DNA of 64,000 nt from Ralstonia pickettii (GTDB taxonomy: Bacteria > Pseudomonadota > Gammaproteobacteria > Burkholderiales > Burkholderiaceae): contig NZ_MCGB01000076.1 of NCBI RefSeq assembly GCF_001699815.1, positions 1 through 64,000 of the forward strand, in the 5' to 3' direction. This document shows positions 19,657-35,466 of the stretch, piece after piece. Position numbers and translations under genes: made by a program. The notes below the pieces were generated by a model, which was given only the letters and a program-made list of their open reading frames with translations, was not told the DNA's origin and did not search any database. The first letter of the stretch is position 1. Each line of letters begins with the position of its first letter.

Positions 19657-20316
19657 TCAGCTGCAAGCGCAATACCGCATCCGAGTGGCCGCCAGGTGCG
19701 CTGGCAAGCTAGCCGAGCGGCGGCCACGTTCCATTGGTTCGAATCCGAGTTCCCGGTAAAGCGCCGCTGCACGGTGGTTCGTGTCCAGCACATCGAGCAC
19801 AAGCGTCTGCCCGACCGTGGAAGGAAGCAGTTGCTGCTTGATTGCGTGTGAGAAGAGGGCCCTGAAAATTCCCCGGCCGCGCAGATCGGGGTGCGTGGCG
19901 CAGTGGGCCACCAGCGTTTGTCGCCGCGTGGGAGCGGGAATCTCGCTTTCGAGAATCAGCCCGCGGCGGATGATGCTGGGCGTGCGGCGCAGGCCAAAAT
20001 GCTGCAGGAAGTCGCGGACTGCGTAGAGATCATCCAGCCAGTTGTGCCGACCGTCCTGGATCGCAAGGGCAGCGATTGGCTGACCGCCGATCGTGGCGAC
20101 CAAATGGCGCTTCCACGAGAAACGCCCGCTTGGGGTGGCGATGGCACGGCGCAGGAAAGCCTCGCATGCGGCCGGTGGCACGCCCAGCAGCCAGTCCAAT
20201 TCCTGGCGGCCGGAGGCGAGCACCAACGGCGCCAGCGCAGCGGCATCGCTAGCCGCAGCGCGACGGAACGTGAGTGCCGAGCCCGATGACTGATCCATCT
20301 GCAGCATCGTGTCCAT
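19657..20316 (-). CDS. GNAT-family acetyltransferase at the end of the capsule-lipid operon
   Basis: A 219-residue GCN5-related N-acetyltransferase. The acetyl-CoA-binding segment reads THPDLRGRGIFRALFSHAIK (Q/R-x-x-G-x-G/A form RGRGI) around residue 140. The C-terminal motif B follows with HRAAALYRELGFEPMERG. Start 20316 (MDTMLQMDQ) lies four bases beyond the stop of the alpha-oxoamine synthase gene; ATG 20343 would overlap it. It is the last gene of the leftward operon. It could N-acylate an amine made by that pathway (inference); the acceptor is unknown. Confidence 0.78.
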   Translation of the reverse strand: MDTMLQMDQSSGSALTFRRAAASDAAALAPLVLASGRQELDWLLGVPPAACEAFLRRAIATPSGRFSWKRHLVATIGGQPIAALAIQDGRHNWLDDLYAVRDFLQHFGLRRTPSIIRRGLILESEIPAPTRRQTLVAHCATHPDLRGRGIFRALFSHAIKQQLLPSTVGQTLVLDVLDTNHRAAALYRELGFEPMERGRRSASLPAHLAATRMRYCACS

Positions 20317-20320
20317 AGTG

Positions 20321-21682
20321 CTAACGCCGTGCCAGCTGCGCAACGGACGCTATCGTATAAGCGATCTGTTCCGGCGTGTGGGTGGAGCAGATAAAGAAGC
20401 GCAGCCGCGCGGCTTTCTCCTCCACCGCGGGATAAAAGATCGGCTGCGTGTTGATGCCTTTCTCGAACAGTGCATTGGCCCATTGCGCGGCCTTGAGCGA
20501 ACTGCCGATAATCACTGGCACGACCGAGTATCCGGCGCTCAGCCCCGTGTTGAGGCCCGCTTCACGTGCGGCGTCCAGGAACTGACGTCCGCGCTCGCGC
20601 AGCTTGGCGACTCGTTGCGGCTCATCCAGCATGCGCCGAAGAGCGGTCAGCGAGGTGGCGGCCAGCACCGGTGACAATCCAACGCTGTACAGGAAACCGG
20701 GTGCCAGGTGGCGCAGGATGTCGATCAGCGCCTGCTCGCCGGCGATGTACCCGCCGCAGCCCGCCAGCGTCTTGCTGAAAGTCCCCATCCAGATATCGAC
20801 GTCGCGGCCGGCCAGCCCGAAATGCTCCCGGATGCCTTTGCCTGTCGCACCGAGCACGCCGAACGAGTGCGCTTCGTCGACCATGAGGAAGGCACCGTGG
20901 CGGCGCTTGATGTCGATGAAGCGTTCCAGCTCGGGGAAGTCTCCATCCATGCTGTAGATGCCTTCCACGGCGATCAGCACACGGCGGTAGTCGCGCCGCA
21001 CGCGCGTGAGCAGGGCGTCAAGCGCTGCCCAGTCGTTATGCGGGAAGTTCAGCCGCTTGGCGCCGCTGAGCTGCGCCCCCTGCACGATGCTGTTGTGCGC
21101 CAACGCGTCATGCACGATCAGGTCGCCGGGGCCAAACAGGCATCCGATCACGGTGACGTTGGTGGCATGCCCGCTGACGAAGGCGACGCAGTCGTCGACC
21201 TCGTAGACGCTTGCCAGCGCGCGCTCTAGCTCGCGCTGGACCGGCCGCTCGCCGGCCACCATGCGGCTTGCCGACGCCGAGGTGCCATACTGGTCGACTG
21301 CGGCTTTGGCGCTGGCCGATACCTCAGCATCCCCGGATAGGCCGAGATAATTGTAGTTGGCGAAGTTGATATAGGACTGGCCGTTGATCTGCGTGGTGGC
21401 CCCGGCCACGCCTTCGTGGACGCGGAAGAACGGCGACGCAATGCCCAAACGCTCGCTTACCTCGCGGATGATCGAGACCTGCTGGTACGCAGGCAGCGTG
21501 TCGAAGCGGCACAGTGCCGCATAGTCCGCCGGATTGACCGGCTGTGCTGCCGACGCTTCACCGGTATGGGCCGCAACTGCCGCCCGTTCGGCTCCCGTCT
21601 CCATTTCTTTCGTGACCCGATCAAGCTGCCGCTTCAGGGCCTTAGCAGCAAGCTGCTGTCGCAACTGGTCGCCCAGTCTCAT
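20321..21682 (-). CDS. Alpha-oxoamine synthase (RkpG-like; serine palmitoyltransferase/KBL/BioF family)
   Basis: A 453-residue PLP enzyme of the alpha-oxoamine synthase family, which condenses an acyl thioester with an amino acid with loss of CO2. Seen: YINFANYNYLGLSGDAEVS, GTSASASRMVAGERPVQREL, the VDEAHSFGVLGATGKG aspartate motif, and GTFSKTLAGCGGYIAGEQAL with the PLP lysine in SKTL. An N-terminal helical extension of about 85 residues precedes the core. It lies 16 bases downstream of the LpxC-like gene in the same operon as the polyketide synthase, which lacks a thioesterase. So this enzyme probably releases the finished acyl chain from the ACP, as in S. meliloti rkp and fungal Fum1/Fum8 systems. 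The amino acid used is unknown. Confidence 0.88.
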   Translation of the reverse strand: MRLGDQLRQQLAAKALKRQLDRVTKEMETGAERAAVAAHTGEASAAQPVNPADYAALCRFDTLPAYQQVSIIREVSERLGIASPFFRVHEGVAGATTQINGQSYINFANYNYLGLSGDAEVSASAKAAVDQYGTSASASRMVAGERPVQRELERALASVYEVDDCVAFVSGHATNVTVIGCLFGPGDLIVHDALAHNSIVQGAQLSGAKRLNFPHNDWAALDALLTRVRRDYRRVLIAVEGIYSMDGDFPELERFIDIKRRHGAFLMVDEAHSFGVLGATGKGIREHFGLAGRDVDIWMGTFSKTLAGCGGYIAGEQALIDILRHLAPGFLYSVGLSPVLAATSLTALRRMLDEPQRVAKLRERGRQFLDAAREAGLNTGLSAGYSVVPVIIGSSLKAAQWANALFEKGINTQPIFYPAVEEKAARLRFFICSTHTPEQIAYTIASVAQLARR

Positions 21683-21698
21683 ACTGCGGATTCCTTCG

Positions 21699-22592
21699 TC
21701 AGTGTGTGGGGTATGCCCATTCCCAGGCATCGGGCCGGGCGAGCAGGGCGGCACAAAGCCGGTAATTCATTTCGTGGCTGGGGCGCAAGGCTGTGACCTT
21801 GCCTAACAGCGGCGCGCCCAGCAGAGCTAGGTCGCCGATTAGATCAAGCACGCGGTGCCGCACGAACTCCATCGGCAGGCGCATGCCGCCGATCACGCCG
21901 GAGCCGACAATGGTAGCGGTGCATGACGGCCTCGCGCCGCGCAGAATCGGTTGGCCCCGCAGATAGCCAAACAAGATGGCTGGCACCGCCCAGCGCAGGC
22001 GGCCATATGAGCGCGATGGCGCGATGTCGGAAGCGAACGAAACGGGGTCGATGATGCCCTGCCAGTTCATCTCGCCGAACCCCTTGAGGTCGTTGGTTAC
22101 GGACATCGCATAGTGGTCGGCCGGTTCGATGATCGTGCGATGCATGCCGCCATCTTCCACAGCAACCGTCTTGAGAATCCGCAGGAAGCGCTTGGGTGCA
22201 TCCAGCGGGAGGCGTCCACAGGCCTCGATCGCCTGCAGCCAGGGCTGTGCGCTGCCATCCAGGATCGGCACCTCTTCGGCATCGATCTCGACGGTGGCGT
22301 GGTCGATCTGGCATGCCAGCAAAGCTGCCAGCAGGTGTTCGACGGTGCGCACGCGCCAGCCATCGGCATTCTGGAGTGCCGTGCACAACGGCTGCCCCAG
22401 GCGCAGCGCCGCAGAGGCGGGCAGTAATGCAAGCTGCTGGCCGCCGCGCATGCGCCGGAACACGATGCCGTGTCCGACGCGCTCAGGATGCACGCGGACA
22501 TTGACGCGCTTGCCGGTGTGCAGCCCGCGGCCGTACAGCCGCAGCTCGCGCGCCAGTGTTCCCTGATTGCTTGCCCAGCCCGGCGCGGTCAT
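21699..22592 (-). CDS. LpxC-like zinc deacetylase paralog in capsule operon
   Basis: A 297-residue homolog of UDP-3-O-acyl-N-acetylglucosamine deacetylase. The catalytic Glu and first zinc His are kept in RTVEHLLAALLACQIDHATV. The second site reads EFVRHRVLDLIGDLALLG with the zinc His and Asp, and the general acid His lies in RPSHEMNYRL. The DAEEVPILDGSAQPW loop is also canonical. The loop that is ARTFGF in LpxC is SRSYGR here, and the substrate region is divergent. Its start overlaps the PKS stop (TGATG), so it is translationally coupled. Being in a capsule operon rather than a cell-division cluster, it is unlikely to be the housekeeping lipid A enzyme. It may deacylate an intermediate of the capsule lipid (inference). 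Confidence 0.88.
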   Translation of the reverse strand: MTAPGWASNQGTLARELRLYGRGLHTGKRVNVRVHPERVGHGIVFRRMRGGQQLALLPASAALRLGQPLCTALQNADGWRVRTVEHLLAALLACQIDHATVEIDAEEVPILDGSAQPWLQAIEACGRLPLDAPKRFLRILKTVAVEDGGMHRTIIEPADHYAMSVTNDLKGFGEMNWQGIIDPVSFASDIAPSRSYGRLRWAVPAILFGYLRGQPILRGARPSCTATIVGSGVIGGMRLPMEFVRHRVLDLIGDLALLGAPLLGKVTALRPSHEMNYRLCAALLARPDAWEWAYPTH

Positions 22593-25500
22593 CACGAGGT
22601 CGTCTCAGTGAGGACATCTGCGACTGCTCGGTTGGCGGTCATTTCGCGTGCCATGCGTTGCAGTTCGTCGCTGCTGATTTCCGAGCCATGGATGGCCGAC
22701 AGTGAGGCCAATTGCTGCTCGACATCACTTGCAGCGCCTGCTTCCTGGCCGTCGGTTGCGCCGGCGCGCACCGATTCAGCTATCTTCTGCGCGAGCGAGC
22801 GCACGGTCGCACCTTCGGCCAACATCATCACCGGCAGCTTGACCTCGAAGCACTCCTCAATTGCCATGCCGAGCTCCATGCCCATCAGCGAGTCCATGCC
22901 CAGATCGGTCACTGAGCGATCAGGATCGACCTTGGCGGCAGATAGGTGGAGGATCCGAGCGATCTGTGCCTGCAGTGTCTCGATCACCAGTTGCACGGCT
23001 TCGGCGGAGTCAAGCGCGCGGATCTCGGCTTGCATGCTGGCGCCATCGGCGCGCTGCGTTTCCTGTCCGATGCCGCCCCGCATGTCGAGATAGCGCAGCG
23101 AGCGTGCGGCTGGCATGACGCGCGAGATGGACTTCCAGTCGAGCCACAGTAGCGCTTCGCCGGCATGGCCGCACTGCAGCACCTGTTCGAGCGCGGTCAT
23201 CGCCTGTGCGGAGGTGATTGCGCGGCCGCCAATGCGGGCCTGCAACGCCTCCAGTGTTTGGGCATTGCGGGCGAGGAAGCCCACGTCCTCGAGTGGGCCC
23301 CAAGCCATGTAGGTGCCCGGCAGGCCTTGCGCGCGGCGCTGGTGAATCAGCGCCTCAAGGAAGGCGTTGGCGGCCACGTAGTTGGACTGCCCGGGGTTGC
23401 CCAGGAAGGTGGTGGCCGACGAATACACCACGAAAAAGTCCAGGGCGAGTTCGCGCGTGGCCTGATGCAGGTTCCAGGCACCGGCAACCTTGGGCGCCAG
23501 TACGTCGCGCATCTTGGCGTCGTCCAGGTTGGCGATCAGGCCGTCGGCAATGGTCATTGCCGAATGCACGAGCCCCTTCAGCGGCGTGCCGCTGCGGCCC
23601 AGTCCGTCGACCAGCGCGCGCACCGCCGCGCCATTATTGAGGTCGCACGACACGACCGCCGTATCTACCTGGAGCGTGTCGCGCCAGTGCGCCGCTTCCT
23701 CGGCCAGTTCGGGCGCGAGCGTGCCGCGCCGGCTGGCCAGCACCAGATGACGTGCGCCGCGCTCGACCAGCCAGCGTGCCGTGGCGAAGCCCAGACCGCC
23801 GGTGCCGCCCGCAACCAGATAGGCGGCCGACGGATCCAGCGCGAGATGCGATGCGCTGGCGGCCTGTGGTGCGGGCACCCCGCCGGCGAAGGTGACCACG
23901 ATCTTGCCGATCTGGCGGGCCTGCTGCATGTAGCGGAAGGCTTCCTCGATGCGTGCGGCAGGGAACGCGCGGTAGGGCAGCGGATCGAGCACGCCCTGAT
24001 CGAGCAGCGCCATCACCTGGGCGAACAGGGATGCGGTGAGCTGCGGCGACGCATCCATCAACTGGTCGGCGTCGATGCCGAAATAGCTGATGTTGTTGCG
24101 GAACGGGCGCAGGCCGATACGGCTGTTCTCGTAGAAATCGCGCTTGCCGAGCTCGAGGAAGCGACCGAACGGACGTAGCACGTCGATGCTGCGCACCATC
24201 GCCTCGCCGGCGAGCGAGTTGAGCACGACATCGACACCTTCGCCTCCGGTCGCGCGCCGGATCTCGTCGGCGAATGCCAGGCTGCGTGAGTCGAACACGC
24301 GGCTTGCGCCGAGCAGGCGTACAAACTCGCGCTTTTCATTGCTACTTGCGGTGGCGAATACTTCGGCACCGAGGTGGCGTGCCAACTGGATTGCAGCGAT
24401 GCCGACACCGCCGGCCGCGCCATGCACCAGTACGCGCTCGCCCTTGCGAATGCGCGCCAGTTCGTTGAGCCCGTAATAGGCGGTGAAGAACGTGGTCGGG
24501 ATCGTGGCGGCTTCCTCAAAGCTCAGCCGCGCGGGTTTGTGTGCCAGCGCCGTCGCGCGGGTACGCAACCGGCTCGCATAACACGCGGGGGCAAAACCGA
24601 GCACCAGATCGCCGCTGGCGAAATTCGCGACCGCACTGCCCACACGCGTGACGCGGCCGGAGAACTCCATGCCGATGGTCGGACCGGCAAAACCGTTCTC
24701 GACGGCTTCGTCAGACAACAGGCCCATCGCGTACATCACGTCACGGAAATTCAGGCCCGCGGCCATCGGCTCCACTTCGACTTCGTCGGGTTCCAGCTCG
24801 AACTCGGGCAGCGGGAACCACTGCAGGTGACTCAGTGAGCCCGGCGATTCAAAGCCGAGCACAGCGGGTATGGCCGATGCACCTGCGGCGGCCCGTGTGG
24901 CCTGTTCGCGCAGCTCGCTCACTTCGGCGGTCAGCATGCGCGGCACGTAGCGTTCTTCGAGGCCGAGCACGACTTCATCTTCCGCATCGGCACATAGCAG
25001 CTCACGGCTGAGCGCCGGTACTGGCTGCGTCTCGCGTGGATCGATATCGATGAGCCTGCAATGCAGTTCGGCGTGCTCGTTCATCAGCACGCGGCCCAGA
25101 CCCCACAGGGTGGCCTGCGACGGCTGCAGCGCCATTGCTGGCGTGCCGGGCGCAGCCAGCGGCGCGCCGCCGCAGGTGACGATCGACAGTTGCGCGCTGG
25201 CGCGCTTACCGCTCAAGCCGCGCACTAAACGTGCTAGCGCGACTGAAGTCGGCTCTTGCGCCTGCATCAGCGTGCCCGCGTCGGCGCTATCGTCAAGCCT
25301 TGGCGCGTCTGCAGCAAGGAAGACGATCTGGCACGGTGCTCCCGCTTCGTCCAGTGCGGCATGCGCCAGCGCCGCTTCGGGGGACTCCACCAACGCAACG
25401 CGCGGGCTGCGGCTCGCTAGGCTTGCGCCAGCAAGGGCCTCTTCGAGCGCGGCAGCCAGCGTGGTGGCGAGTTCGGCCGGTGTGCCAGGACAGACCACCA

Positions 25501-28500
25501 GCCAGTTCGCCCCCAATTGCTCGGCGTTGCCGTCAATTCCTTCTGTGACGATCTCGCCGATATCGCATGAATCGGCTTGACGTCCAAGCTGGCGGCGCGC
25601 CAGCAGCAGCGCCGGTGCGCCTTCAATCTGGAGATCAGCCTCGACGTGGCGGGCTGGTGACTGGAAGCCCTCGGCAAGCAGCATGGCTTCGATGGACTCG
25701 GCGGGGAGCAAATCCCCACGACCTGCGGACCACCATTCCGGCGACAAACCGAACACAATGTCGGAGAAACGGCTTGGCTGGGCCTCGCTAAGCACCAGCA
25801 GTGCCCCAGGCGTCATCCACGTGCGCACGGCCGCCAGCAATCGATTCGGCTTGCCAGATGTGCGCAGCAGGTTATTGACCACCACCACATCGAACGTGTG
25901 GCTGCGTCCCGGCTCGACGGTCAACTCGGGCTGATCGCTCAGTTGTAGCGTCGCCGTGCGGATTAGCGGATGACGGCCGGTATCAAAGGCGCCGAGCTGC
26001 TCGGGGCTGCCGGCGATGGTGTACTCGCAGCGGCCCTGCAGGTGCGCGCCGATCGGCTCGAATAGATTGGCTTCCGGCGGGACGATTTCCAGAACCCGCA
26101 TCGGGCGGCGCTGGGTCCATCTCTCGATGCACGCATCCAGGCTAGCACTGGCCATTGCGTTGACATGCGACCACGTCGGGGAGGCCTCGAACAGATGGTC
26201 CAGCAGGCTGTTGCGCGCCGGGGGCAGCACGGCGCCAGCTTCCAGCTCGCCGTTCAGAATGGCCGGCAGCGAGGCGCCGCAATGTGCCAGCAGCGTCAGC
26301 TCGGCCACATGGCTGGGCGACAGGGATAGCAGGCTCCGCCAGAGTTCTTCGATAGGCGGCAGCGTTTCGTCGTCCAGTGCCAGCACGCCGTCGCGGCGCA
26401 CGAGGATGCCGTCTTCCAGCAACATGTCGACTAGCCGTGCGAGCAGTGCTGGATTCGCGCAGGCCGGCAGCTCGGCCTTGGCGCGGACGTGCAGCGCTTC
26501 GACGGCACGCAACGCGTAGGCCGCAGCCAGCACGTCGATCAGCGGCATGACTTCGGTGAGGTGCCTGTCGCGATGCGCGGCGTCTTCGGTGCCGGCGACC
26601 ATGGTGGCTGCCGTGGCCAACAGGCTGGCCGGCGAAGGCGTCGCAGCCGCAGCAATCGCTTCGGTTGCCGGCTTGGCTTCCAGCGCAAAGACATAGCGCC
26701 CAGGTTTGCCGTGGCGACGGCGGATCAGATCTACGCGGCGGAAGCGGCATGCGGAGAGCTTCAGCACTGTATTGCCGCCGGCATCCAGGTATTGGAAATT
26801 GGCGACCAACGAATGCGGACTGCGGCGTTCGATCCGCGCCACCACGCGGGCCGGCACGCCGCCAAAGTAATCCATGCGGCCAAACTGCACCGGTACGTAG
26901 GCGGCCTGCTCAGCACTGGGCTTGCCGGCGGCCATCAGGGCCAGCAGCGGATGCAGGCCGCTGTCGAGCGCGCCCGGATGCATCGTGTAGCGATCCAGAT
27001 GAGCCTGCTGCGAGGCGGGCGCTGCAAGCTCAGCGAGTGCAACGTCACCGTCGATGCGGACCGTCTGCACCCAGCGGAAGGCCTCGCCAAACTCCAAGCC
27101 GATCGCGAGTGCCGCCTGGTACAGCGTGCTGCCGGCAATGGGGGCCTGCTCTTCGAGCGCAGCCATGCTTTGCGGCTCGATGGCCGGCGCGGTCTGCGAC
27201 GGGCCGCCGATCAGCAAGCGACCGGCCACATTGATGGTCCAGGGATCGTCGCTCACGCGTGGGCGCGTTTCGATCACGAAACCCGCAGTGCGCGGATCGA
27301 GCGTAAAGCGGAACAGTCGGCCCTGCTGCGGTTGGAATACCACCGGGGTGCGAATCTCCAGATTCTCCACCGCGCAAGTCACGGTACCGAAGTAGCTGCG
27401 CGCCGCAGCCAGCGCCATCTCCGCGTAACCCGCCCCAGGAAAGGTGACAGCCCCGTCCACCACGTGGCTGGCGAGCATGGGGAGCTTGACTGGGTCGATC
27501 TGGTTTTCCCAGGCTGCCGCGCAGTCCTTCAGCCGGTAGCCAAGCAGCGGGTGCTGGCGGTGGCGGTGGACCAGGTCGTAGCCTTCTGCGGTGATGGGGG
27601 CCCAGTAGGGCGTGCGCTGCCACGGATAGGTCGGCAGCACGACGTCGCGGTGTGCGTCGGGGTAGACGGTATTGCGATCCAGCCGCGCGCCGTGTGCGAG
27701 CGCCGTGCAGAACGCGTGGCGCAGCTGGCTGCTCTGGTCGTGGTTGCGCTTGAGCGTTGGCAGGGCGCTGCCGTTCGCGCGTGCCGCCTCCAATGATTGC
27801 GACACGTAGGCGCGCAGGATCGAGTGCGGCCCGATTTCCAGGAACAGCCGCATGCCGCCATCGATCAGCTGGCGCGTGGCCGGCTCGAACTGGACAGGCT
27901 CGCGGATATTGCGCCACCAATAGCTGGCGTCCAGTTCGGCGCCCGACAGCGGCGTGCCGGTCACCGTTGAGACAAAAGTGCTGTGCGTTGCCCGCGGTTG
28001 CAGGCCTCGCAGACCTTCCACCACAACATCATGGATGGCATCCATTTGCCGACTGTGGAAGGCGTAGTCTAGATCGAGCATCTGGAAGAACTGATTTGCC
28101 TGCGCCAAATGCGCCTGCACGGCTTCCAGTGCCGTGAGGGGGCCGGCCAGCGTGACGGCGCCGGGGCTGTTGATGCCGGCGACTTCCAACACGTCGTCAA
28201 GGCCCAACGCGGCGATCAGTTCGCGCGCGGCCCCTTCCCCCACGCCTGCAGCGGCCATCTTGCCTTTGCCAGCGGTGAGCGCCTGGGCGCGGCTGCGAAC
28301 CTTGATGACGCGCACGGCCTGCTCCATCGACAAGGCGCCCGCGGCATACGCCGCCGCGACTTCGCCCACGCTATGGCCATAGCATGCGTCAAAGCGCAGG
28401 CCCTGCTCGAGCAGCGATTGCACGATGCCCGCCTGTATGGCAAACAGCAGTGGCTGCGCGTTTTCCGTGCGCTGCAGCCACTCCGCGGTGGCGCCTGCAC

Positions 28501-30262
28501 GCATCACATCGAGCAGCGATGCGCTGCCGTCGGCGCACCAGAAGGCATCGATCTGCTTTACGGTTGCGCAGAAGACACTGTCCTCCTGCAGCAGGCGCTG
28601 CCCCATGCCGGCCCACTGAGAGCCATTGCCGGAGAACACCAGCGCCAGCTTGCCGTCGTTGGCGACGGCCTCGCCCGTCACCACAGCGGGGCAGGTGTCG
28701 CCTTGCGCCAGCGCAGCCAGCGCCGCGATGCCATCTGCGGCAACGTCTGCAGCGTTAGATGGGTCGATGACGGCGCGGTAGCGTAAGGGCTGTCGGCGAT
28801 GAGCCGTCGCGCCTGCCAGCGCCTGCCAGGACGTGCCTGCGCCGAGTTGGTCCCGATAGGCGGCGGCCAGCGCCTGCAGCGCTTCTTGCGAACGCGCGCT
28901 GAGCATCAACGGGGCGGGGCGGTTTTGCGCAACGCTGATCGCCTTGCCGGCTTTTGCTGCTTTGGAAGGCGGCGCGGCTTCGCGCAGCAGAACGTGCGCA
29001 TTGGTGCCGCCAAAACCAAACGAATTTACGCCGACAAGCAGGCGCTTGTCCTTGGCCGCCAACGGTGTGTAGCGATCGACCACACGCAGGTTGCCACCCG
29101 TGAAGTCGATATTGGGGTTCGGCGTGCGGAAGTGGATCGACGCTGGCACCGCGCGATGTTTCAGGCACAGGATTGCCTTGATCAGACCAGCCATGCCGGA
29201 CGCCGTTTCCAGATGCCCGACATTGGTCTTGGCCGAGCCGATTAGCAACGGCGCATCGGGGCTGCGCAGCTTGCCAATCACGTCGATCAGCGCGCGCGTC
29301 TCGATTGGGTCTCCGACTGCGGTGCCGGTGCCGTGCGCCTCCAGATAGTCCACTTCGCGCGGATCGACCCCGGCGCGGGCGTACACGTTTTCCAGCAGCG
29401 CCGCTTGCGTGGCCGACGCCGGCACATTGATGCCGCCTTGCGAGTGGCCATCGGAGTTGACCCCCGACGACGCGATCACGGCATGGATGGTGTCACCGTC
29501 GGCCAGCGCCTTGGACAGCGACTTGAGCAGCACCAGCGCGCCGCCTTCGGCACGCACATAACCGTCGCCAGAAGCATCGAAAGCGCGGCAGCGGCCGGTG
29601 GGCGACAGCATCGAGGCTTTGGCGAAGCTGACAAAGGGGAACGGGTGCAGCAGCAGATTGACGCCGCCTGCCAGCGCCGTTTCCACCTCTCCGGCTCGGA
29701 TCGCGTTGCATGCCTGGTGCAGTGCCACCAGCGACGACGAGCATGCGGTGTCGATCGACATGCTCGGCCCGCGCAGGTCGAACAGATACGAGATGCGGTT
29801 GGAGGCGATGCTCAGCGTATTGCCGGTGGCGGAGTAGGCGTCCACCACGCTGAGGTCGTCGACGCCCCGGTCGCCATAGTCCTGCGCCGCCACCCCGACG
29901 AACACTGCGCAGTTCTGGCCCGCCATCTGTTGGGGGTGGTGCCCTGCATGTTCGAAGGCTTCCCAGGCCAGTTCGAGGAGCAGGCGCTGCTGAGGATCCA
30001 TCTGCTGCGCTTCGCGCGGCGAGATGCCAAAGAAGTCGGCATCAAAGCCCGCGACGTTGTCGATGACGCCGGCCGCAAAAGTATAGCTCTTGCCGGGCTC
30101 ACGCTTGGAGGGGTGTTGATAAAACTCGGTACTGAAGCGGTCCGCCGGCACTTCGGTCACGGCGTCGGTTTCAGCAACCAGGAGCTTCCAATAATCCTCC
30201 GGGCTGTGAACACCGCCCGGAAACCGACACGACATTCCGACAATAGCTATTGCATCTTTCAT
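22592..30262 (-). CDS. Highly reducing type I polyketide/fatty-acid synthase (RkpA-like)
   Basis: A 2556-residue single-module synthase. Domains in order: KS (about 1-430; DTACSSSLVALH, EAHGTGTAVGDP, NVGHLE). AT (about 545-850; GHSVGEVAAAY, and YAFHS at the specificity loop, closest to malonyl types). DH (about 920-1190; ASHVVDGAVTFPGAGY and ALDSGLHPL). A methyltransferase-like region (about 1250-1550) whose SAM loop is degenerate (RVLEIVPPEANLFEP). A ketoreductase structural half, ER (about 1770-2080; VLVHGAAGGVGIAAIQLA), KR (about 2110-2330; VAGGTGGLGFATARW, YSSATTFLGNPGQSNY). ACP (about 2425-2500; LGMDSLMGMEL). No thioesterase. The architecture fits a saturated chain made iteratively and passed to the oxoamine synthase downstream. 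An AGGTTAAGAAG stretch lies before the ATG. Confidence 0.92.
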   Translation of the reverse strand: MKDAIAIVGMSCRFPGGVHSPEDYWKLLVAETDAVTEVPADRFSTEFYQHPSKREPGKSYTFAAGVIDNVAGFDADFFGISPREAQQMDPQQRLLLELAWEAFEHAGHHPQQMAGQNCAVFVGVAAQDYGDRGVDDLSVVDAYSATGNTLSIASNRISYLFDLRGPSMSIDTACSSSLVALHQACNAIRAGEVETALAGGVNLLLHPFPFVSFAKASMLSPTGRCRAFDASGDGYVRAEGGALVLLKSLSKALADGDTIHAVIASSGVNSDGHSQGGINVPASATQAALLENVYARAGVDPREVDYLEAHGTGTAVGDPIETRALIDVIGKLRSPDAPLLIGSAKTNVGHLETASGMAGLIKAILCLKHRAVPASIHFRTPNPNIDFTGGNLRVVDRYTPLAAKDKRLLVGVNSFGFGGTNAHVLLREAAPPSKAAKAGKAISVAQNRPAPLMLSARSQEALQALAAAYRDQLGAGTSWQALAGATAHRRQPLRYRAVIDPSNAADVAADGIAALAALAQGDTCPAVVTGEAVANDGKLALVFSGNGSQWAGMGQRLLQEDSVFCATVKQIDAFWCADGSASLLDVMRAGATAEWLQRTENAQPLLFAIQAGIVQSLLEQGLRFDACYGHSVGEVAAAYAAGALSMEQAVRVIKVRSRAQALTAGKGKMAAAGVGEGAARELIAALGLDDVLEVAGINSPGAVTLAGPLTALEAVQAHLAQANQFFQMLDLDYAFHSRQMDAIHDVVVEGLRGLQPRATHSTFVSTVTGTPLSGAELDASYWWRNIREPVQFEPATRQLIDGGMRLFLEIGPHSILRAYVSQSLEAARANGSALPTLKRNHDQSSQLRHAFCTALAHGARLDRNTVYPDAHRDVVLPTYPWQRTPYWAPITAEGYDLVHRHRQHPLLGYRLKDCAAAWENQIDPVKLPMLASHVVDGAVTFPGAGYAEMALAAARSYFGTVTCAVENLEIRTPVVFQPQQGRLFRFTLDPRTAGFVIETRPRVSDDPWTINVAGRLLIGGPSQTAPAIEPQSMAALEEQAPIAGSTLYQAALAIGLEFGEAFRWVQTVRIDGDVALAELAAPASQQAHLDRYTMHPGALDSGLHPLLALMAAGKPSAEQAAYVPVQFGRMDYFGGVPARVVARIERRSPHSLVANFQYLDAGGNTVLKLSACRFRRVDLIRRRHGKPGRYVFALEAKPATEAIAAAATPSPASLLATAATMVAGTEDAAHRDRHLTEVMPLIDVLAAAYALRAVEALHVRAKAELPACANPALLARLVDMLLEDGILVRRDGVLALDDETLPPIEELWRSLLSLSPSHVAELTLLAHCGASLPAILNGELEAGAVLPPARNSLLDHLFEASPTWSHVNAMASASLDACIERWTQRRPMRVLEIVPPEANLFEPIGAHLQGRCEYTIAGSPEQLGAFDTGRHPLIRTATLQLSDQPELTVEPGRSHTFDVVVVNNLLRTSGKPNRLLAAVRTWMTPGALLVLSEAQPSRFSDIVFGLSPEWWSAGRGDLLPAESIEAMLLAEGFQSPARHVEADLQIEGAPALLLARRQLGRQADSCDIGEIVTEGIDGNAEQLGANWLVVCPGTPAELATTLAAALEEALAGASLASRSPRVALVESPEAALAHAALDEAGAPCQIVFLAADAPRLDDSADAGTLMQAQEPTSVALARLVRGLSGKRASAQLSIVTCGGAPLAAPGTPAMALQPSQATLWGLGRVLMNEHAELHCRLIDIDPRETQPVPALSRELLCADAEDEVVLGLEERYVPRMLTAEVSELREQATRAAAGASAIPAVLGFESPGSLSHLQWFPLPEFELEPDEVEVEPMAAGLNFRDVMYAMGLLSDEAVENGFAGPTIGMEFSGRVTRVGSAVANFASGDLVLGFAPACYASRLRTRATALAHKPARLSFEEAATIPTTFFTAYYGLNELARIRKGERVLVHGAAGGVGIAAIQLARHLGAEVFATASSNEKREFVRLLGASRVFDSRSLAFADEIRRATGGEGVDVVLNSLAGEAMVRSIDVLRPFGRFLELGKRDFYENSRIGLRPFRNNISYFGIDADQLMDASPQLTASLFAQVMALLDQGVLDPLPYRAFPAARIEEAFRYMQQARQIGKIVVTFAGGVPAPQAASASHLALDPSAAYLVAGGTGGLGFATARWLVERGARHLVLASRRGTLAPELAEEAAHWRDTLQVDTAVVSCDLNNGAAVRALVDGLGRSGTPLKGLVHSAMTIADGLIANLDDAKMRDVLAPKVAGAWNLHQATRELALDFFVVYSSATTFLGNPGQSNYVAANAFLEALIHQRRAQGLPGTYMAWGPLEDVGFLARNAQTLEALQARIGGRAITSAQAMTALEQVLQCGHAGEALLWLDWKSISRVMPAARSLRYLDMRGGIGQETQRADGASMQAEIRALDSAEAVQLVIETLQAQIARILHLSAAKVDPDRSVTDLGMDSLMGMELGMAIEECFEVKLPVMMLAEGATVRSLAQKIAESVRAGATDGQEAGAASDVEQQLASLSAIHGSEISSDELQRMAREMTANRAVADVLTETTS

Positions 30263-30337
30263 CTTCTTAACCTGCTCGATTTCTGCGCTGCTTGCGGCTT
30301 CACGTTGCTATCTCTGGGCACACCAAGGTGGCAGAGA

Positions 30338-31915
30338 CTACTGTTGTTGCTGCTGTTGGCTTTCAGTGCTCGCCGCGTTTGTTCTTGATGCCCCGGCATC
30401 CCGCGATGCCGGTAGCGGGGCGCTGATGCAATCGATCAGCAGTTGGCCCAACGATTCGGCATGTACCCGCATGCGCTTCTGCTGGCTTGGTGGCGCCGAG
30501 GCGGCATCACTGCGCCACAACAGATAGTCGCTATGGATGGGTAGATGGTCGGTCTGGCGATAAACCGCCGGGAGTGCCGGCACGTGGTCGCCATAGAAGC
30601 AGAGGATCGCGGGACGCTTGCGGGTAGCCAGATAGCGCGTCAACTGCCCGATCATGGCGTCCGCATTTGCGAGGTGGCGGAGGTAGGCGGTCAGATCGTT
30701 CCAAGGCTTGCCTTCGCCAAACGCATGATAGGAAGCCGCCTCCCCGGGCGCCACGTGTTCCAGGTGCAGCGGCCCATGGTTCTCGATGGTCATCGCGAAG
30801 ACGAACGCCGGCGAATCGCCGGCGGCCTCAAGTTCGACCTGAATGGCATCGGCCACCGCAAGGTCGGCCACGTAGGGACCCGCGCGCTGCGCCTTGTTGA
30901 AATGGCGGATATCGAGAAAGCGATCGAAATGCATTAGCGGCAGAACGCGGTGCCTGCCGAAGAAGTCTCCGTGGTACGGATGCATAGCCACCGTACGGTA
31001 GTCCGCGCGCCGGAACCACCCCGCCAACGAAGTACACGGCTGGCGTATATAAGCATATGGGTAGAACTTGGCGTAGCCTTGCGCGCCAGAATCCAGCCCC
31101 GAGAGCACGGCAAATTCCGTGCGCATCGTGTTGGCGCCCCAGGCCGGCACTTCCAGTTGGCCGCACTGCACCGCTTCGGCGCAGGCTGCATCAAAGTTCG
31201 GCAGCAGATCGGCGCGCACGGCGAGACCGAGCCGGCGCGCGTCGAAAAACGATTCGCTCTGGATGACGATGACGTCCGGCCGTACCGTTGGTTCCGCCGT
31301 GCGCGAGAACGGCCCATGGCTCATCGCTGTGCGCAGCGCTGCCGCAGTGGTGGGGCGCAGGCCGTTCAGCAAGTAGGCCACGAACACCGCGTAGAAGCCA
31401 TGCTGGCGCTGGTCGGCATCGGGCTGCATTGTGAGCCGAAGCGTTCGCACGGCCCATGCGTGCAAAAGGAAGCTAGCCGCCGCGCCGGCCAGCAGCAGCC
31501 CCCGCGAGGCGCCCTGCAGCGGCATGCTCAGCACCAGCATCCCTACGAAGACCGCCACACCAAAGCCAAGCGCCAGCACGTTGGCAAAGCTGAGGAACGG
31601 CAGGTACATGCGCGGATGTCGGAACAACTGGCTGAACAGGCTTAAGTCCGAGAACACCAGTGGTTCGCGCAGCGACGCATACTTGGCGTTGCTGACCACG
31701 GCCAGCAATCCCGTCAGCGACACGGCCACGAAACCCGCGAACACCGGGCGTGCCGATACCGCCAGCGTCAGCAGGAACACCGTTGCCACCGAAAAACCAT
31801 GCGTGGCAAGCGCCGCAGCGTTGCGCCGCCACGGCGGCGCGGAACGCGGCAAGGCGATGGCGTCCGGCAGGAACGACATCGCCAGGGCAAGCAGGAAAAT
31901 GGCTGCGCCTGGCAT
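30338..31915 (-). CDS. LtaS-type membrane sulfatase-fold protein (RkpI-like)
   Basis: A 525-residue protein with about four or five N-terminal membrane segments (to about residue 165) and an extracytoplasmic alkaline-phosphatase/sulfatase domain. The metal and active-site elements are visible: DVIVIQSESFFDARRLG, a threonine at the nucleophile position in NTMRTEFAVLSGLDS, MTIENHGPL, and CFYGDHVPAL (the terminal DH metal pair). This is the plan of lipoteichoic-acid synthase and phosphoglycerol/phosphoethanolamine transferases. The C-terminus ends in six glutamines before the stop. It lies between the PKS and SDR genes, 6 bases from the SDR stop. It may add a phospho-head group to the capsule lipid (inference). 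Confidence 0.8.
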   Translation of the reverse strand: MPGAAIFLLALAMSFLPDAIALPRSAPPWRRNAAALATHGFSVATVFLLTLAVSARPVFAGFVAVSLTGLLAVVSNAKYASLREPLVFSDLSLFSQLFRHPRMYLPFLSFANVLALGFGVAVFVGMLVLSMPLQGASRGLLLAGAAASFLLHAWAVRTLRLTMQPDADQRQHGFYAVFVAYLLNGLRPTTAAALRTAMSHGPFSRTAEPTVRPDVIVIQSESFFDARRLGLAVRADLLPNFDAACAEAVQCGQLEVPAWGANTMRTEFAVLSGLDSGAQGYAKFYPYAYIRQPCTSLAGWFRRADYRTVAMHPYHGDFFGRHRVLPLMHFDRFLDIRHFNKAQRAGPYVADLAVADAIQVELEAAGDSPAFVFAMTIENHGPLHLEHVAPGEAASYHAFGEGKPWNDLTAYLRHLANADAMIGQLTRYLATRKRPAILCFYGDHVPALPAVYRQTDHLPIHSDYLLWRSDAASAPPSQQKRMRVHAESLGQLLIDCISAPLPASRDAGASRTNAASTESQQQQQQ

Positions 31916-31921
31916 GCTGCG

Positions 31922-32707
31922 TTAACGCTCTGCCCGGGGCAGGTAGGACAGCCGGTCCAGGATGCGGTCCCCCAGCCGTGGAGGCAGCAGTGGCAGCAGG
32001 CGCATACCCAGCGCCAGCAGCGCCGGAAATGCAATCTCCGCTCGCCCCGCATCCAGCTTGGCGCGGATGTGGCGAGCCGCCTTGTCAGCTGACCACAGGA
32101 AAGGCTTATCGCCGGGGAAGACGTCGCTCATCGCCGTCTTGACGAAGCCGGGAAAGACCAATGACAGGAGCACCCCGTCCGCCGCCAGCAACGGTCGCAC
32201 CGATTCTCCATAAGCCTTGATTGCCGACTTGCTCGCGCAATAAGCCGGCGAGATGGCCATGCCGCGAATGGCCGCCAGCGAGCTGATCACCGCCACATGG
32301 CCACGCTTGCGTGCACGCAGGCGTGCCAGCACAGGCAACAGCGTATGAAACGCCCCATAGAAGTTGGTGTCGAAGACCTCGCGTGTGCGCGCAAGGTCTT
32401 CCCAGTCGCTGGCCGAAGACAATGTATTTGCCACGCCAGCGTTTGCGATCAGCAGGTCGATCGGGTGCGCATCGTCGAATGCCGTCAGCCATGCGGCGAC
32501 GGCCCCAGCGTCACGGACGTCCAATTGCGCAGTGATTACGGTGGCGCCGGCCTGCCGGCACTGATCGGCGCAGGCTTCCAACCGCACTGCATCGCGCGCA
32601 ACCAGTCCGAGCGTGACGCCGGGTGCCGCGTATGCGCGAGCTAGTGCCTGGCCAATGCCTGCGCTGGCGCCGGTGATGACAATGCAATGGGCGCGGCGGT
32701 CAGTCAT
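31922..32707 (-). CDS. Short-chain dehydrogenase/reductase (RkpH-like)
   Basis: A 261-residue classical SDR. The cofactor motif is VITGASAGIGQALARAYA, followed by LIANAGVA, the catalytic Ser in VAVISSLAAIRGMA, and YCASKSAIKAYGES with the catalytic Tyr and Lys. The C-terminus carries a hydrophobic patch (ALLALGMRLLPLLPPRLG) that may touch the membrane. It starts within the last 8 bases of the kpsS gene. In the S. meliloti rkp region and in sphingoid-base pathways an SDR of this kind reduces the keto group made by the oxoamine synthase; I infer the same role here. Confidence 0.9.
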   Translation of the reverse strand: MTDRRAHCIVITGASAGIGQALARAYAAPGVTLGLVARDAVRLEACADQCRQAGATVITAQLDVRDAGAVAAWLTAFDDAHPIDLLIANAGVANTLSSASDWEDLARTREVFDTNFYGAFHTLLPVLARLRARKRGHVAVISSLAAIRGMAISPAYCASKSAIKAYGESVRPLLAADGVLLSLVFPGFVKTAMSDVFPGDKPFLWSADKAARHIRAKLDAGRAEIAFPALLALGMRLLPLLPPRLGDRILDRLSYLPRAER

Positions 32708-33908
32708 GGGCCGCAGCCTCCAGCCGCTTCACCGCGCCGGCCGTGGCCATGGCGATGCCGGTGCGTGTGTAAAAGTCGCCGTTGATTTGCGTGTGGTGCA
32801 CTAGGTAGTCCAGGAACGCCTGGTACAAGGCCATGTCCGGTTCGTCCGCTTCTCGCCAGAACGTATCCAGGTTGCCTTGCCAGGTCATGCCTTCCATGTC
32901 GTAGATCGCCGTTCCCAATGCCTTCAGCGGCCGGCGGTGGTGCAGGGCAGACAGCCCGACCGTGCTGTTGACCACCACCACGCCACGCGCGTGATCGAGC
33001 AAGGTCGGCAGGTGGCCGGCATCGATGAACTCAAGGCGGTCTGCCATGCCGAGCGCTTTTGCGGCTTTATTGGCGTAGTGGCGATACTCGATCAGCCCTG
33101 TGTCAAGCGGATGATTCTTGATGACCAGAAGCGCATCAGCAGGCGCATGCGCGGCGAACGAGGCAAGCACATGGTCAATCGCCTGCCGGATGCCATCGAA
33201 CGGCGAGTGGGTCTGGATCTGGGAGTCCGAATTCAGTTGCAGCGGAAACAAGTAGTAGGGCAGCTTCTTTGCGAGCAGGCGCTCCGTCAGCCGTTCCGCT
33301 TCAACCCGATACTGGCGCTCCTGAAGCAGGCGCCGGGCCAGCCCCGCGTATTCGCGGTAGCCGTTATGGGGGCGATGGCTTTGGTAGTGCGGAAAACGGC
33401 TGGCGTACAAGGCATTTGCCATGCGGTAGCGGATGTCGTGGTAAGCGCGTTCGTAGAGGTTGTAGCCAGTGTTTTGGCCAGGAGCGTGACGCGGCGTTAC
33501 TGCGCGGTGCTCGCGATACCACGCCGGGTCGCGCGGCAACCGCGAGCGACCATTCACGCCGTGCACTTCCATGGTAAACCAATGAGGCCGGACATAACCT
33601 TCTTCGAATACGTTCACGCGAATATTATTTCGCTCGGCACTCGGATATACAGGCTGATGGATTTTCCTGCAATCCCCAAAGAGTAGGAGGTCGGTAAAGC
33701 TACCTGATTTGAGTAGGTCGGAATACCAGCCAGAAAGGGCATTTAGTTCACCCGTGTAATTGCACCCTCTCTCGATGCCGGTATAGGCGAGATCGCCCCC
33801 GCAGAAGTTCACCCGCTGCACATGGTGTCCGCGTGAGCTCAGAGCGGACAGCAGTTGGCGGAAGAAAGGCGATGCCGTGCCTTGCAGGGCGAGAAACGAT
33901 CGGCGCAT
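32700..33908 (-). CDS. kpsS: KpsS/RkpJ-type capsule polysaccharide Kdo transferase
   Basis: A 402-residue protein of the KpsS/LipB family. Seen are NVFEEGYVRPHWFTMEV, which is the family hallmark, LVIKNHPLDTGLIEYRHYA, and the acceptor/CMP-binding segment VVVVNSTVGLSALHHRRPLK. In E. coli group 2 capsules KpsS adds the first beta-Kdo to the lipid, and KpsC extends the linker. The first ATG at 33908 gives the normal length. It is the promoter-proximal gene of the leftward capsule-lipid operon, which ties lipid synthesis to linker synthesis. Confidence 0.9.
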   Translation of the reverse strand: MRRSFLALQGTASPFFRQLLSALSSRGHHVQRVNFCGGDLAYTGIERGCNYTGELNALSGWYSDLLKSGSFTDLLLFGDCRKIHQPVYPSAERNNIRVNVFEEGYVRPHWFTMEVHGVNGRSRLPRDPAWYREHRAVTPRHAPGQNTGYNLYERAYHDIRYRMANALYASRFPHYQSHRPHNGYREYAGLARRLLQERQYRVEAERLTERLLAKKLPYYLFPLQLNSDSQIQTHSPFDGIRQAIDHVLASFAAHAPADALLVIKNHPLDTGLIEYRHYANKAAKALGMADRLEFIDAGHLPTLLDHARGVVVVNSTVGLSALHHRRPLKALGTAIYDMEGMTWQGNLDTFWREADEPDMALYQAFLDYLVHHTQINGDFYTRTGIAMATAGAVKRLEAAAHD

Positions 33909-34230: not shown

Positions 34231-35448
34231 GTGCTCAGCTTCAGGGTACCGGCCTGGCGCACTGCGTCGGGATGCACTGCATTGGAAAATACGTTGGATA
34301 CGGTACTGAGAGAAGACACGGCCGCTGAGGCGACCAGAAGCAGAAGTGGGCTTTGGCAGCGTTTGAAACGCGTTAACCGGCTCTTTCTCGGCACTGTTGT
34401 TGTGCCAACCGCGCTCGCGACGCTCTACTTTGGCGTTGTTGCGTCCGATATCTACGTTTCTGAGTCGCGCTTTGTGGTGCGCAGCCCGCAGCGGCAGAGC
34501 CAGAGCGGCAGCCTGAGTGCGCTCTTGCAGGGCACCGGCTTCTCGCGGGCGCAGGATGACACCTATCCGGTGATCGATTACATCGAATCGCGCGATGCCC
34601 TGGGCGAGCTGAACCGAAACAACTATATCCTCGACGCCTACGGCAACCACGGCGACATCCTGAGCCGGTTCCTGCGGCAGTTCGACGATAGTTTTGAAGC
34701 GCTCTGGAAGTACTATAACAAGCGCGTGGTCACGGTGGAGTTCGACTCCACCTCCGCGATCACCACGCTGCAGGTGCGCTCGTTCTCCTCGCAGGATGCG
34801 ATCAAGATCAATGAGTCTCTGCTGGAACTGAGTGAACACTTGATCAACCGCATGAACGAGCGCGCCGCGAAAGACATGGTGCAGTTCGCGCGCGCCGAGG
34901 TCGATGCGGCTGCGGCCAAAGCCAAGGATGCAGCGGCGGCGCTGGCGGCCTATCGTAAATCGAACACCGTGTTCGACCCCGACAGGCAGTCGGCCTTGCA
35001 ATTGCAGCAGGTAACTACGCTGCAGGCGCAACTGTTCAGTGCGCAGACGCAGCTGTCCCAGCTACAAGCCATTGCGCCACAGAATCCGCAGATTCCGGTG
35101 CTGAAAACCAATATTGCCGCAGTGGAAAAACAAATCCAGGAGGCAACGGGCGGTGTAACGGGGGGCAAGGGTTCGCTGTCGGATAAGGCCGCCAACTACA
35201 CCCGCCTTCAACTCGACTCGCAGTTTGCCGACAAACAGTTGGCATCGGCGATGGCGGCGCTGGAGAATGCCCGCGCTGAAGCGCAGCGCAAGCAACTGTA
35301 CCTGGAACGTCTGGTGCAGCCGAATCAGCCGGATGTGGCGGTCGAACCGAAGCGGTTGAAGCGGATTTTCGAAATTTTCGCCCTGGGCATGCTGGTGTGG
35401 GGGGTTCTCAGCTTAGTGCTTGCCGGCGTTCGCGAGCATCACGATTAA
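34231..35448 (+). CDS. kpsE: KpsE/CtrB-type capsule export inner-membrane protein
   Basis: A 405-residue polysaccharide co-polymerase/export protein. After about 50 N-terminal residues a membrane segment (LGTVVVPTALATLYFGVVAS) is followed by the family signature ISESRFVV-like YVSESRFVVRSPQRQSQSG. A long periplasmic coiled-coil part follows (about 195-360), then the C-terminal membrane segment (ALGMLVWGVLSLVLAGVRE). This is the KpsE/CtrB/BexC layout. The frame opens with GTG 34231; an internal TTG could also start it, so the N-terminus is uncertain. It heads the operon kpsE, kpsM, kpsT, glycosyltransferase. Confidence 0.9.
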   Translation: MLSFRVPAWRTASGCTALENTLDTVLREDTAAEATRSRSGLWQRLKRVNRLFLGTVVVPTALATLYFGVVASDIYVSESRFVVRSPQRQSQSGSLSALLQGTGFSRAQDDTYPVIDYIESRDALGELNRNNYILDAYGNHGDILSRFLRQFDDSFEALWKYYNKRVVTVEFDSTSAITTLQVRSFSSQDAIKINESLLELSEHLINRMNERAAKDMVQFARAEVDAAAAKAKDAAAALAAYRKSNTVFDPDRQSALQLQQVTTLQAQLFSAQTQLSQLQAIAPQNPQIPVLKTNIAAVEKQIQEATGGVTGGKGSLSDKAANYTRLQLDSQFADKQLASAMAALENARAEAQRKQLYLERLVQPNQPDVAVEPKRLKRIFEIFALGMLVWGVLSLVLAGVREHHD

Positions 35449-35466
35449 GGTAGAGAAGAGACCTGC

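What the first reader, a model, noticed from the sequence alone, without database searches (positions are those of the whole stretch)
19657..33908. Capsule-lipid operon: reducing PKS + oxoamine synthase + SDR + LpxC-like + LtaS-like + KpsS
Seven co-directional genes, mostly overlapping or a few bases apart, join a KpsS Kdo transferase with a single-module highly reducing PKS without thioesterase, an alpha-oxoamine synthase, a reductase, an LpxC-like deacetylase, an LtaS-type transferase and a GNAT. The rhizobial K-antigen genes rkpA, G, H, I, J have the same core. The PKS (KS-AT-DH-MT-ER-KR-ACP) plus oxoamine synthase plus SDR set also parallels fungal sphinganine-analogue synthesis (Fum1, Fum8, Fum13). 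Inference: the operon makes a long-chain amino alcohol (sphingoid-like) lipid that carries the capsule or primes its Kdo linker. That would differ from the lyso-phosphatidylglycerol anchor known for E. coli group 2 capsules.
Basis: partly seen in the sequence, partly recalled or inferred. Interest (0 to 1): 0.88.

Follow-up and report, generated by a model that had tools for sequence, protein, structure and literature searches.

The report
Capsule operon with predicted sphingoid-lipid pathway
A bacterial capsule gene cluster carries a complete-looking enzyme set for building its own sphingosine-like lipid, probably the lipid that anchors or carries the capsule; the core set was already known from rhizobia and Burkholderia but its chemistry appears to be unsolved.

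Summary
The seven-gene operon is real: KpsS, SDR, LtaS-like, reducing PKS, LpxC-like, alpha-oxoamine synthase (OAS), GNAT, beside kpsE/M/T and kpsC. Five genes are collinear homologues of Sinorhizobium meliloti rkpA-G-H-I-J, which print already credits with a "specific lipid carrier". So the kind is known. LpxC-like and GNAT are add-ons (15 and 14 of 88 loci, all Burkholderiaceae-type). Correction: the PKS methyltransferase keeps the fold but lacks the SAM motif in 64 of 65 PKSs; the other domains are intact, so a saturated, probably unbranched acyl-ACP is expected. OAS is the likely release step: a PKS lies with it in 67 of 80 named loci, and relatives are fused to acyl-AMP ligase plus ACP (8 of 80) or to KS-AT. 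An SPT-type serine beside the PLP lysine (89 of 89 rows) hints at serine. Best reading: a serine-derived long-chain base, reduced, given a phosphoglycerol-type head group, then Kdo. The anchor role is inferred. Against exclusivity: 7 of 50 OAS-locus genomes have no KpsS-family protein, and three of these have other glycosyltransferases beside the LtaS-like gene.

The parts
32700..33908 (-). KpsS-family beta-Kdo transferase (rkpJ-like; wcbO by recall), 402 aa
   Evidence: PF05159 356.5 bits; NCBIfam KpsS model 280 bits, under its cut-off of 600
31922..32707 (-). classical SDR, proposed 3-keto reductase (rkpH-like), 261 aa
   Evidence: PF00106 134 bits; Tyr156 and Lys160 in 29 of 29 rows; 33% to the S. 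meliloti rkpH-position gene
30338..31915 (-). LtaS/GacH-like phosphoglycerol-transferase-fold membrane enzyme (rkpI-like), 525 aa
   Evidence: PF00884 126 bits; nearest solved relatives GacH and LTA primase; E221, T263, D443, H444 in 36 of 36 rows, five hydropathy peaks in residues 4-131
22592..30262 (-). single-module reducing PKS KS-AT-DH-PsiMT-ER-KR-ACP, no TE (wcbR/rkpA-like), 2556 aa
   Evidence: Pfam domains; catalytic residues kept across 65 PKSs
25463..26710 (-). pseudo-C-methyltransferase region of the PKS (residues 1185-1600)
   Evidence: model pLDDT 84.4, best matches CurJ and citrinin PKS CMeT; GxGxG missing from the motif segment in 64 of 65
22787..22978 (-). ACP domain of the PKS (residues 2429-2492)
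   Evidence: PF00550 54.9 bits; attachment Ser2458 in 64 of 65, gap in one
21699..22595 (-). LpxC paralogue (LpxC2), 298 aa
   Evidence: PF03331 233.5 bits; second LpxC of the genome; catalytic residues kept in 16 of 16 rows, acyl-passage region remodelled
20321..21754 (-). alpha-oxoamine synthase (rkpG-like), 477 aa as listed, probably 453 aa from ATG 21682
   Evidence: PF00155 152 bits; best PDB relative serine palmitoyltransferase; 53% to the S. meliloti rkpG-position gene
19657..20343 (-). GNAT-fold N-acyltransferase, add-on gene
   Evidence: PF00583 34 bits; model pLDDT 86.6, GNAT acetyltransferases as best matches
34231..36908 (+). kpsE (34231-35448), kpsM (35467-36258), kpsT (36255-36908): divergent export genes
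51918..53933 (+). KpsC-type two-domain Kdo transferase
   Evidence: two PF05159 stretches

Best explanation
The operon makes a long-chain amino alcohol (sphinganine-like) lipid for the capsule. (1) The PKS works iteratively like a fatty acid synthase on malonyl units and gives a saturated, probably unbranched acyl-ACP. (2) It has no thioesterase: the OAS releases the chain by decarboxylative condensation with an amino acid, most likely serine, giving a 3-keto long-chain base. (3) The SDR reduces the ketone. (4) The LtaS-like enzyme adds a phosphoglycerol-type head group to the hydroxyl that serine supplied, which would give a sphingoid counterpart of (lyso)phosphatidylglycerol. (5) KpsS and KpsC add the Kdo linker and the capsule is exported by KpsMTE. 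(6) In Burkholderiaceae the LpxC paralogue and the GNAT exchange the acyl group on an amine, as LpxC and LpxD do in lipid A. Shown by sequence: gene set, order, conserved catalytic residues, lost SAM motif, PKS-OAS pairing, link to KpsS. Inferred: steps 1-3 from family chemistry. Conjecture: serine, head group, steps 4 and 6, and the anchor role.
For: PKS with the OAS in 67 of 80 named loci: in 57 within 200 bases on the same strand, in the other 10 only LpxC2 lies between. OAS fused in one chain with acyl-AMP ligase and ACP in 8 of 80, with KS-AT in L099, and lying under one 'type I polyketide synthase' gene in Planktothrix: its substrate is very likely ACP-bound. Rhodobacterial SPTs prefer acyl-ACP (abstract and passages of PMC9386255), and PLP-dependent PKS chain release is known for fumonisin (passage in PMC3870968). 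Nearest solved relative is SPT; PLP Lys, the stacking His, the Arg pair and an SPT-like Ser before the Lys are invariant in 89 of 89 rows, while KBL has Gly there. PKS catalytic residues kept, AT motif GHSVGE in 65 of 65; SAM motif lost. LtaS-like protein nearest GacH, a phosphoglycerol transferase, found in 40 of 50 OAS-locus genomes. PF05159 proteins in 43 of these 50 (41 above 200 bits) against 29 of 229 in a class sample (8 above 200 bits); within the sample 4 of 7 with OAS against 4 of 222 without have one above 200 bits, Fisher p = 2e-5, or 3 of 6 against 4 of 222, 3e-4, without the own genome. rkpA-G-H-I-J collinear in S. meliloti, whose rkp-1 products are said in print to make a lipid carrier.
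Against: No lipid has been measured. The LtaS-like active site should face the periplasm (family knowledge; N-terminal hydrophobic segments) while KpsS works in the cytoplasm, so step 4 before step 5 needs flipping. 7 of 50 OAS-locus genomes have no PF05159 protein; in three of them the LtaS-like gene, away from the PKS-OAS locus, sits beside glycosyltransferase genes instead. PF05159 alone is not proof of KpsS: it also rings in the Bacillus subtilis control. 10 of 50 have no LtaS-like match. G031 keeps SDR-PKS-OAS but has no LtaS-like gene, no second LpxC and no GNAT in its locus. Three of the 7 OAS genomes in the class sample lack PF05159. OAS scores below every NCBIfam equivalog cut-off listed, SPT included, so serine is a hint only. 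The SDR is an ordinary classical SDR with no specific relative.
Confidence: 0.5

Rival explanations
1. The operon makes the amino lipid, but as a free or differently glycosylated membrane lipid co-regulated with the capsule, not as the capsule anchor.
For: Genomes with PKS-OAS and an LtaS-like gene but no PF05159 protein (Nitrosomonas, Leeia and a betaproteobacterial MAG), where GT2 and GT1-like genes, and a GT4 gene in two of the three, lie beside the LtaS-like gene; that gene is on another contig than PKS-OAS in two and some 13 kb from the locus fetched in the third. Planctomycete FAAL-ACP-OAS fusions show no PKS or KpsS within their fetched loci.
Against: KpsS is the first gene of the same operon with 8 bases overlap and is enriched in OAS genomes; rkp-1 is described in print as involved in K-antigen export and required for poly-Kdo secretion (passage in PMC4881576).
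Confidence: 0.25
2. The anchor is ordinary phosphatidylglycerol; the PKS only supplies a special fatty acid that an acyltransferase-like OAS passes to it.
For: The capsule anchor is described as highly conserved among all species, PG-poly(Kdo) (passage in PMC11666461). OAS-family proteins have often been called acyltransferases (recalled).
Against: Full OAS catalytic set conserved in 89 of 89, which simple acyl transfer would not need; SDR and LtaS-like partners unexplained.
Confidence: 0.12
3. The PKS-OAS pair makes a diffusible signal or secondary metabolite (alpha-aminoketone type, as CqsA does for CAI-1).
For: The CqsA-type model matches weakly (146 bits against a cut-off of 428).
Against: Clustering with KpsS and LtaS-like genes in distant genera and in rhizobia. 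No receptor or signal partner was looked for; GGDEF and EAL genes lie about 26 kb away in the window.
Confidence: 0.08

Closest known systems
Sinorhizobium meliloti rkp-1 (rkpA,G,H,I,J)
   Same: All five homologues, collinear: PKS 37%, OAS 53%, SDR 33%, LtaS-like 31%, KpsS 38% identity.
   Different: No LpxC2 or GNAT match in the 33 kb fetched; gene order differs: here KpsS and SDR come first and OAS follows LpxC2.
Burkholderia capsule wcb genes
   Same: wcb and rkp clusters are stated to be mostly homologous, with wcbR/rkpA the PKS (passage in PMC3908369). That wcbO-P-Q-R-S-T correspond in order to KpsS-SDR-LtaS-PKS-LpxC2-OAS is my recollection and was not tested on that genome. All seven genes are seen in Cupriavidus sp. 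U2, B. lata, B. singularis and P. bryophila (L026, L027, L031, L030 with L122, L123, L125, L124).
   Different: Not examined beyond this gene set.
Fumonisin Fum1/Fum8/Fum13
   Same: Reducing PKS without TE, OAS release, SDR (fungal side recalled; release in a passage of PMC3870968).
   Different: C-methylation in fumonisin (recalled); here the MT has lost its SAM motif.
Rhodobacterial sphingolipid set (AasR, AcpR, SPT)
   Same: SPT-like OAS working on acyl-ACP (PMC9386255, abstract and passages).
   Different: There a fatty acid is loaded by a ligase; here a PKS builds the chain on its own ACP. Planctomycete FAAL-ACP-OAS fusions look intermediate.
E. coli group 2 capsule (KpsS, KpsC on phosphatidylglycerol)
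   Same: KpsS, KpsC, KpsM, KpsT, KpsE.
   Different: E. coli group 2 loci have no PKS-OAS set (recalled).

Membership tests
rkp-1 / wcb capsule lipid cluster | PKS, OAS, SDR, LtaS-like and KpsS homologues clustered | tested here: met
rkp-1 / wcb capsule lipid cluster | cluster needed for capsule production | not testable with these tools
   only published for other strains (passages in PMC4881576)
fumonisin-type PKS with PLP-dependent release | reducing PKS without TE plus OAS | tested here: met
fumonisin-type PKS with PLP-dependent release | working C-methyltransferase in the PKS | tested here: not met
   fold present, SAM motif absent in window and in 64 of 65 PKSs; activity itself not assayed
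serine palmitoyltransferase | OAS catalytic residues with Ser before the PLP Lys | tested here: met
   89 of 89 rows
serine palmitoyltransferase | score above the NCBIfam SPT equivalog cut-offs | tested here: not met
   287.6 of 500, 284 of 640, 231.1 of 670
serine palmitoyltransferase | uses L-serine and acyl thioester | not testable with these tools
   needs enzyme assay
LpxC | zinc and catalytic residues | tested here: met
   16 of 16 rows (residue roles recalled)
LpxC | main lipid A deacetylase of the cell | tested here: inconclusive
   TIGR00325 175.4 under its cut-off 187.25, PRK13187 528.2 over 423; a better-scoring LpxC lies on contig C61, which suggests a second role for this copy
LtaS / phosphoglycerol transferases | metal ligands and Thr nucleophile | tested here: met
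   36 of 36 rows (residue roles recalled)
LtaS / phosphoglycerol transferases | phosphatidylglycerol as donor | not testable with these tools
   nearest solved relative is GacH
KpsS | Capsule_synth domain, single | tested here: met
KpsS | NCBIfam KpsS equivalog cut-off | tested here: not met
   280.3 of 600
bacterial ceramide synthase (GNAT type) | sequence relation of the GNAT to it | not tested
   no reference sequence was fetched

The most novel reading that the evidence does not exclude
The operon builds a 'sphingo-phosphatidylglycerol': a PKS-made chain released with serine, reduced, and given phosphoglycerol by the LtaS-like enzyme, so that KpsS meets a glycerol head group like that of PG but on a sphingoid lipid; in Burkholderiaceae LpxC2 and GNAT then set its N-acyl group. 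This would be a second chemical class of lipid anchor for Kdo-linked capsules, shared by rhizobia, Burkholderiaceae, Bordetella relatives and Halomonas-type bacteria.
Probability: 0.25. Interest if true: 0.85.

Novelty: new variant of a known kind. Interest (0 to 1): 0.58.

Why it matters
The anchor of ABC-transporter capsules is described as one PG-poly(Kdo) lipid, 'highly conserved among all species' (PMC11666461 passage). A widely distributed gene set that appears to make a sphingoid lipid beside KpsS suggests that this rule may have been drawn from a few groups only. It turns the decades-old 'rkp lipid carrier' question into concrete, testable chemistry: a serine-derived, saturated long-chain base. 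It would also add sphingolipid-type chemistry to bacteria that are not usually counted as sphingolipid producers.

Tried and rejected
Active methyl branching: rejected, SAM motif lost and the region is less conserved than every catalytic domain tested (mean pairwise identity 0.25, against 0.38-0.64; the linker/PsiKR stretch has 0.30 and the C-terminal tail 0.20). The motif was sought in the aligned segment 1370-1420 only; one of the 64, L025, has no MT region at all.

OAS fused to PKS in L043: the long frame holds only the OAS family, so it is an overlapping open frame, not a fusion; L059, L097, L098 and L104 show long frames too, were not scanned by Pfam and were not counted as fusions.

KpsS specialisation by tree: three KpsS from genomes without PKS-OAS form one 100/100 branch among 38 rows, but it lies nested among the others under an arbitrary root; three rows are few and the fourth such genome (G334) fell under my score limit. 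Not used as evidence.

LpxC2 alignment row L030 is a wrong segment of the frame and was ignored there; the other rows stand.

First Lys-context count by regular expression mis-picked 14 of 88 rows; replaced by the alignment count. In one search the printed window letters are shifted because the window row had been read with gap signs; the column counts are right.

PKS set: 64 relatives with a frame over 2000 aa and score over 1500; split, truncated or weakly matching PKSs (such as L077, L085, L098, L099) were left out.

SDR as a specific 3-ketosphinganine reductase: the PDB comparison gave only generic SDRs in the 60 of 91 rows shown; not decidable by sequence.

Papers: Kiss 1997 by PMC number and two papers that I tried by DOI (S. 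meliloti 1021 rkp-1; a capsule paper recalled as being on B. pseudomallei) are not held; what I know of them is recalled or second-hand. That I found no sphingoid capsule lipid in print rests on searches of the open-access library only. Identity of wcbS is recalled.

Organism: no tool named it. Genome size and two large replicons in relatives suggest Ralstonia or a near genus; this is a guess.
Full report
What is there. The window (contig C76 of a 5.24 Mb, 99.99% complete genome) carries an ABC-transporter capsule locus. On the minus strand seven genes run KpsS, SDR, LtaS-like, PKS, LpxC2, OAS, GNAT, with overlaps or short gaps. Divergent on the plus strand lie kpsE, kpsM and kpsT; further on are glycosyltransferases, a GDP-mannose dehydratase and partner, an export protein with SLBB domains and KpsC.

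How widespread. In 61 genomes (the own one, others of genus, family and order) a search with the OAS gave 9 clear relatives at 47-100% identity, the own genome included (other hits are 36% or less). Five of the 16 genus genomes have it, so it is patchy. My own profile search over these 80 plus 8 unnamed loci found a PKS in 67 of the 80 and in 8 of 8; in 57 of the 67 it lies within 200 bases of the OAS frame on the same strand and in the other 10 only LpxC2 lies between. LpxC2 occurs in 15 of 88 and GNAT in 14 of 88, the 14 all among the 15, and all from Burkholderiaceae-type genomes (Cupriavidus, Burkholderia, Paraburkholderia, Pandoraea, the window's genus and G026).

Core and known relatives. 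In S. meliloti (L106, a record labelled pSymB) tblastn finds PKS, OAS, SDR, LtaS-like and KpsS in this order at 37, 53, 33, 31 and 38% identity, the order of rkpA-G-H-I-J. The rkpI frame is unlisted in the plasmid gene table but open. [quoted passage not shown] PMC7902896 (passages read) reports that rkpABCDEF is one large rkpA gene. The kind of system is therefore known; its lipid was not identified in any passage that I saw.

The PKS. Pfam finds KS, AT, DH, ER, KR and ACP, and no thioesterase. Across 65 near-complete PKSs (64 relatives and the window) the KS Cys and two His, AT Ser and His, DH His and Asp, and KR Tyr and Asn are invariant; the ER glycine is kept in 64 and the ACP Ser in 64, with a gap in one. 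The AT motif is GHSVGE in 65 and YAFHS in 56 of 65, the malonyl type by recalled rules. Residues 1185-1600 model well (pLDDT 84.4) and match PKS C-methyltransferases first (CurJ, citrinin CMeT), but Pfam finds no methyltransferase and the GxGxG motif is absent from 64 of 65, the exception being L081; L025 lacks the region. Mean pairwise identity of this region is 0.25 against 0.38-0.64 for KS, AT, DH, ER, KR and ACP. I take it for a structural pseudo-domain. A saturated, unbranched chain follows by inference.

The OAS. Its nearest solved relatives are serine palmitoyltransferases. His220, Asp293, His296, Ser327, Lys328, Arg450 and Arg452 are invariant in 89 rows (88 loci and the window). The Ser before the Lys is shared with the SPTs and is Gly in KBL in the printed alignments; PMC3870968 (passages read) assigns an active-site serine to binding of the substrate hydroxyl, though its numbering could not be mapped with certainty. 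Fusions show what the OAS works on: acyl-AMP ligase-ACP-OAS in 8 of 80 loci, which are L072, L087, L092, L094, L096, L102, L103 and L105; KS-AT-OAS in Kibdelosporangium (L099); and an OAS match inside a PKS gene in Planktothrix. With PMC9386255 (abstract and passages), where SPTs prefer acyl-ACP, this makes chain release by OAS the best-supported inference of this report.

Tie to capsule. I searched 50 of the 80 OAS-locus genomes (limit 50; 49 of them have a PKS in the locus, the Nitrospira locus L057 has none). PF05159 proteins occur in 43 of 50, 41 above 200 bits, against 29 of 229 of a class sample, 8 above 200 bits. Inside the sample 4 of 7 OAS genomes have a KpsS above 200 bits against 4 of 222 others (Fisher p = 2e-5; without the own genome 3 of 6 against 4 of 222, p = 3e-4). 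The family is not specific on its own: it also rings in the Bacillus subtilis control. The LtaS-like protein occurs in 40 of 50, 39 of them below 1e-80. In one sample genome (G184, L120) KpsS-SDR-LtaS lies divergently beside OAS-PKS. Against an exclusive tie: G068, G073, G075, G076, G094, G101 and G103 have no PF05159 protein. In G073, G075 and G076 the LtaS-like gene stands beside GT2 and GT1-like genes and, in two of the three, a GT4 gene, but on another contig than PKS-OAS in G073 and G075 and about 13 kb outside the fetched locus in G076. G068 has only LtaS-PKS-LpxC2-OAS, next to cytochrome oxidase genes.

Add-ons. LpxC2 is one of two LpxC genes, also in the four genus relatives and in G026, while G031, G035 and G055 have one. 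Its zinc and catalytic residues are kept in 16 of 16 rows; the canonical Lys next to the zinc His is Arg in all 16, and the segment corresponding to the acyl passage is rebuilt (residue roles recalled). GNAT is a GNAT acetyltransferase fold with no close solved relative by sequence. That the two go together in 14 of 15 loci suggests one joint deacylation and reacylation step; this is a guess by analogy with LpxC and LpxD. G031 lacks LtaS-like and LpxC2, and a GNAT in its locus, but keeps SDR-PKS-OAS.

Weak point. LtaS-type enzymes act outside the inner membrane, KpsS inside (family knowledge). Either the base flips, or the head group is added to the exported lipid, or the enzyme acts on something else.

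Verdict. A member of the rkp/wcb kind with two lineage-specific genes, whose chemistry can now be stated sharply.

Noticed in passing
L018:16655-19223: In a near-identical genome of the genus the GNAT gene is split by an insertion of about 2.6 kb, so the GNAT may be dispensable there.
   Followed up: partly
L112:9631-16262, L114:9412-15573, L113:5814-10754: Genomes without a PF05159 protein (Nitrosomonas, Leeia, a betaproteobacterial MAG) keep the LtaS-like gene beside GT2 and GT1-like genes, plus a GT4 gene in L112 and L114: possibly a glycolipid version of the same pathway.
   Followed up: partly
L096:7877-11281, L072:7997-11458 and six more Planctomycete loci: One-chain acyl-AMP ligase-ACP-OAS proteins, a ready-made sphingoid-base synthase by architecture.
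   Followed up: partly
L099:6737-11314: Kibdelosporangium 1525 aa protein with KS-AT followed by OAS.
   Followed up: no
L082, L084, L089, L095: Stappiaceae loci carry two KpsS-like genes side by side, forming two separate branches in the tree.
   Followed up: no
window 42405-46604: 1399 aa protein with three GT1-type glycosyltransferase stretches.
   Followed up: no
window 46601-49261: 886 aa protein joining an FkbM methyltransferase domain with DUF4214.
   Followed up: no
window 58045-59109: Sigma-70 family factor with a SnoaL-like C-terminal domain, near the capsule region.
   Followed up: no
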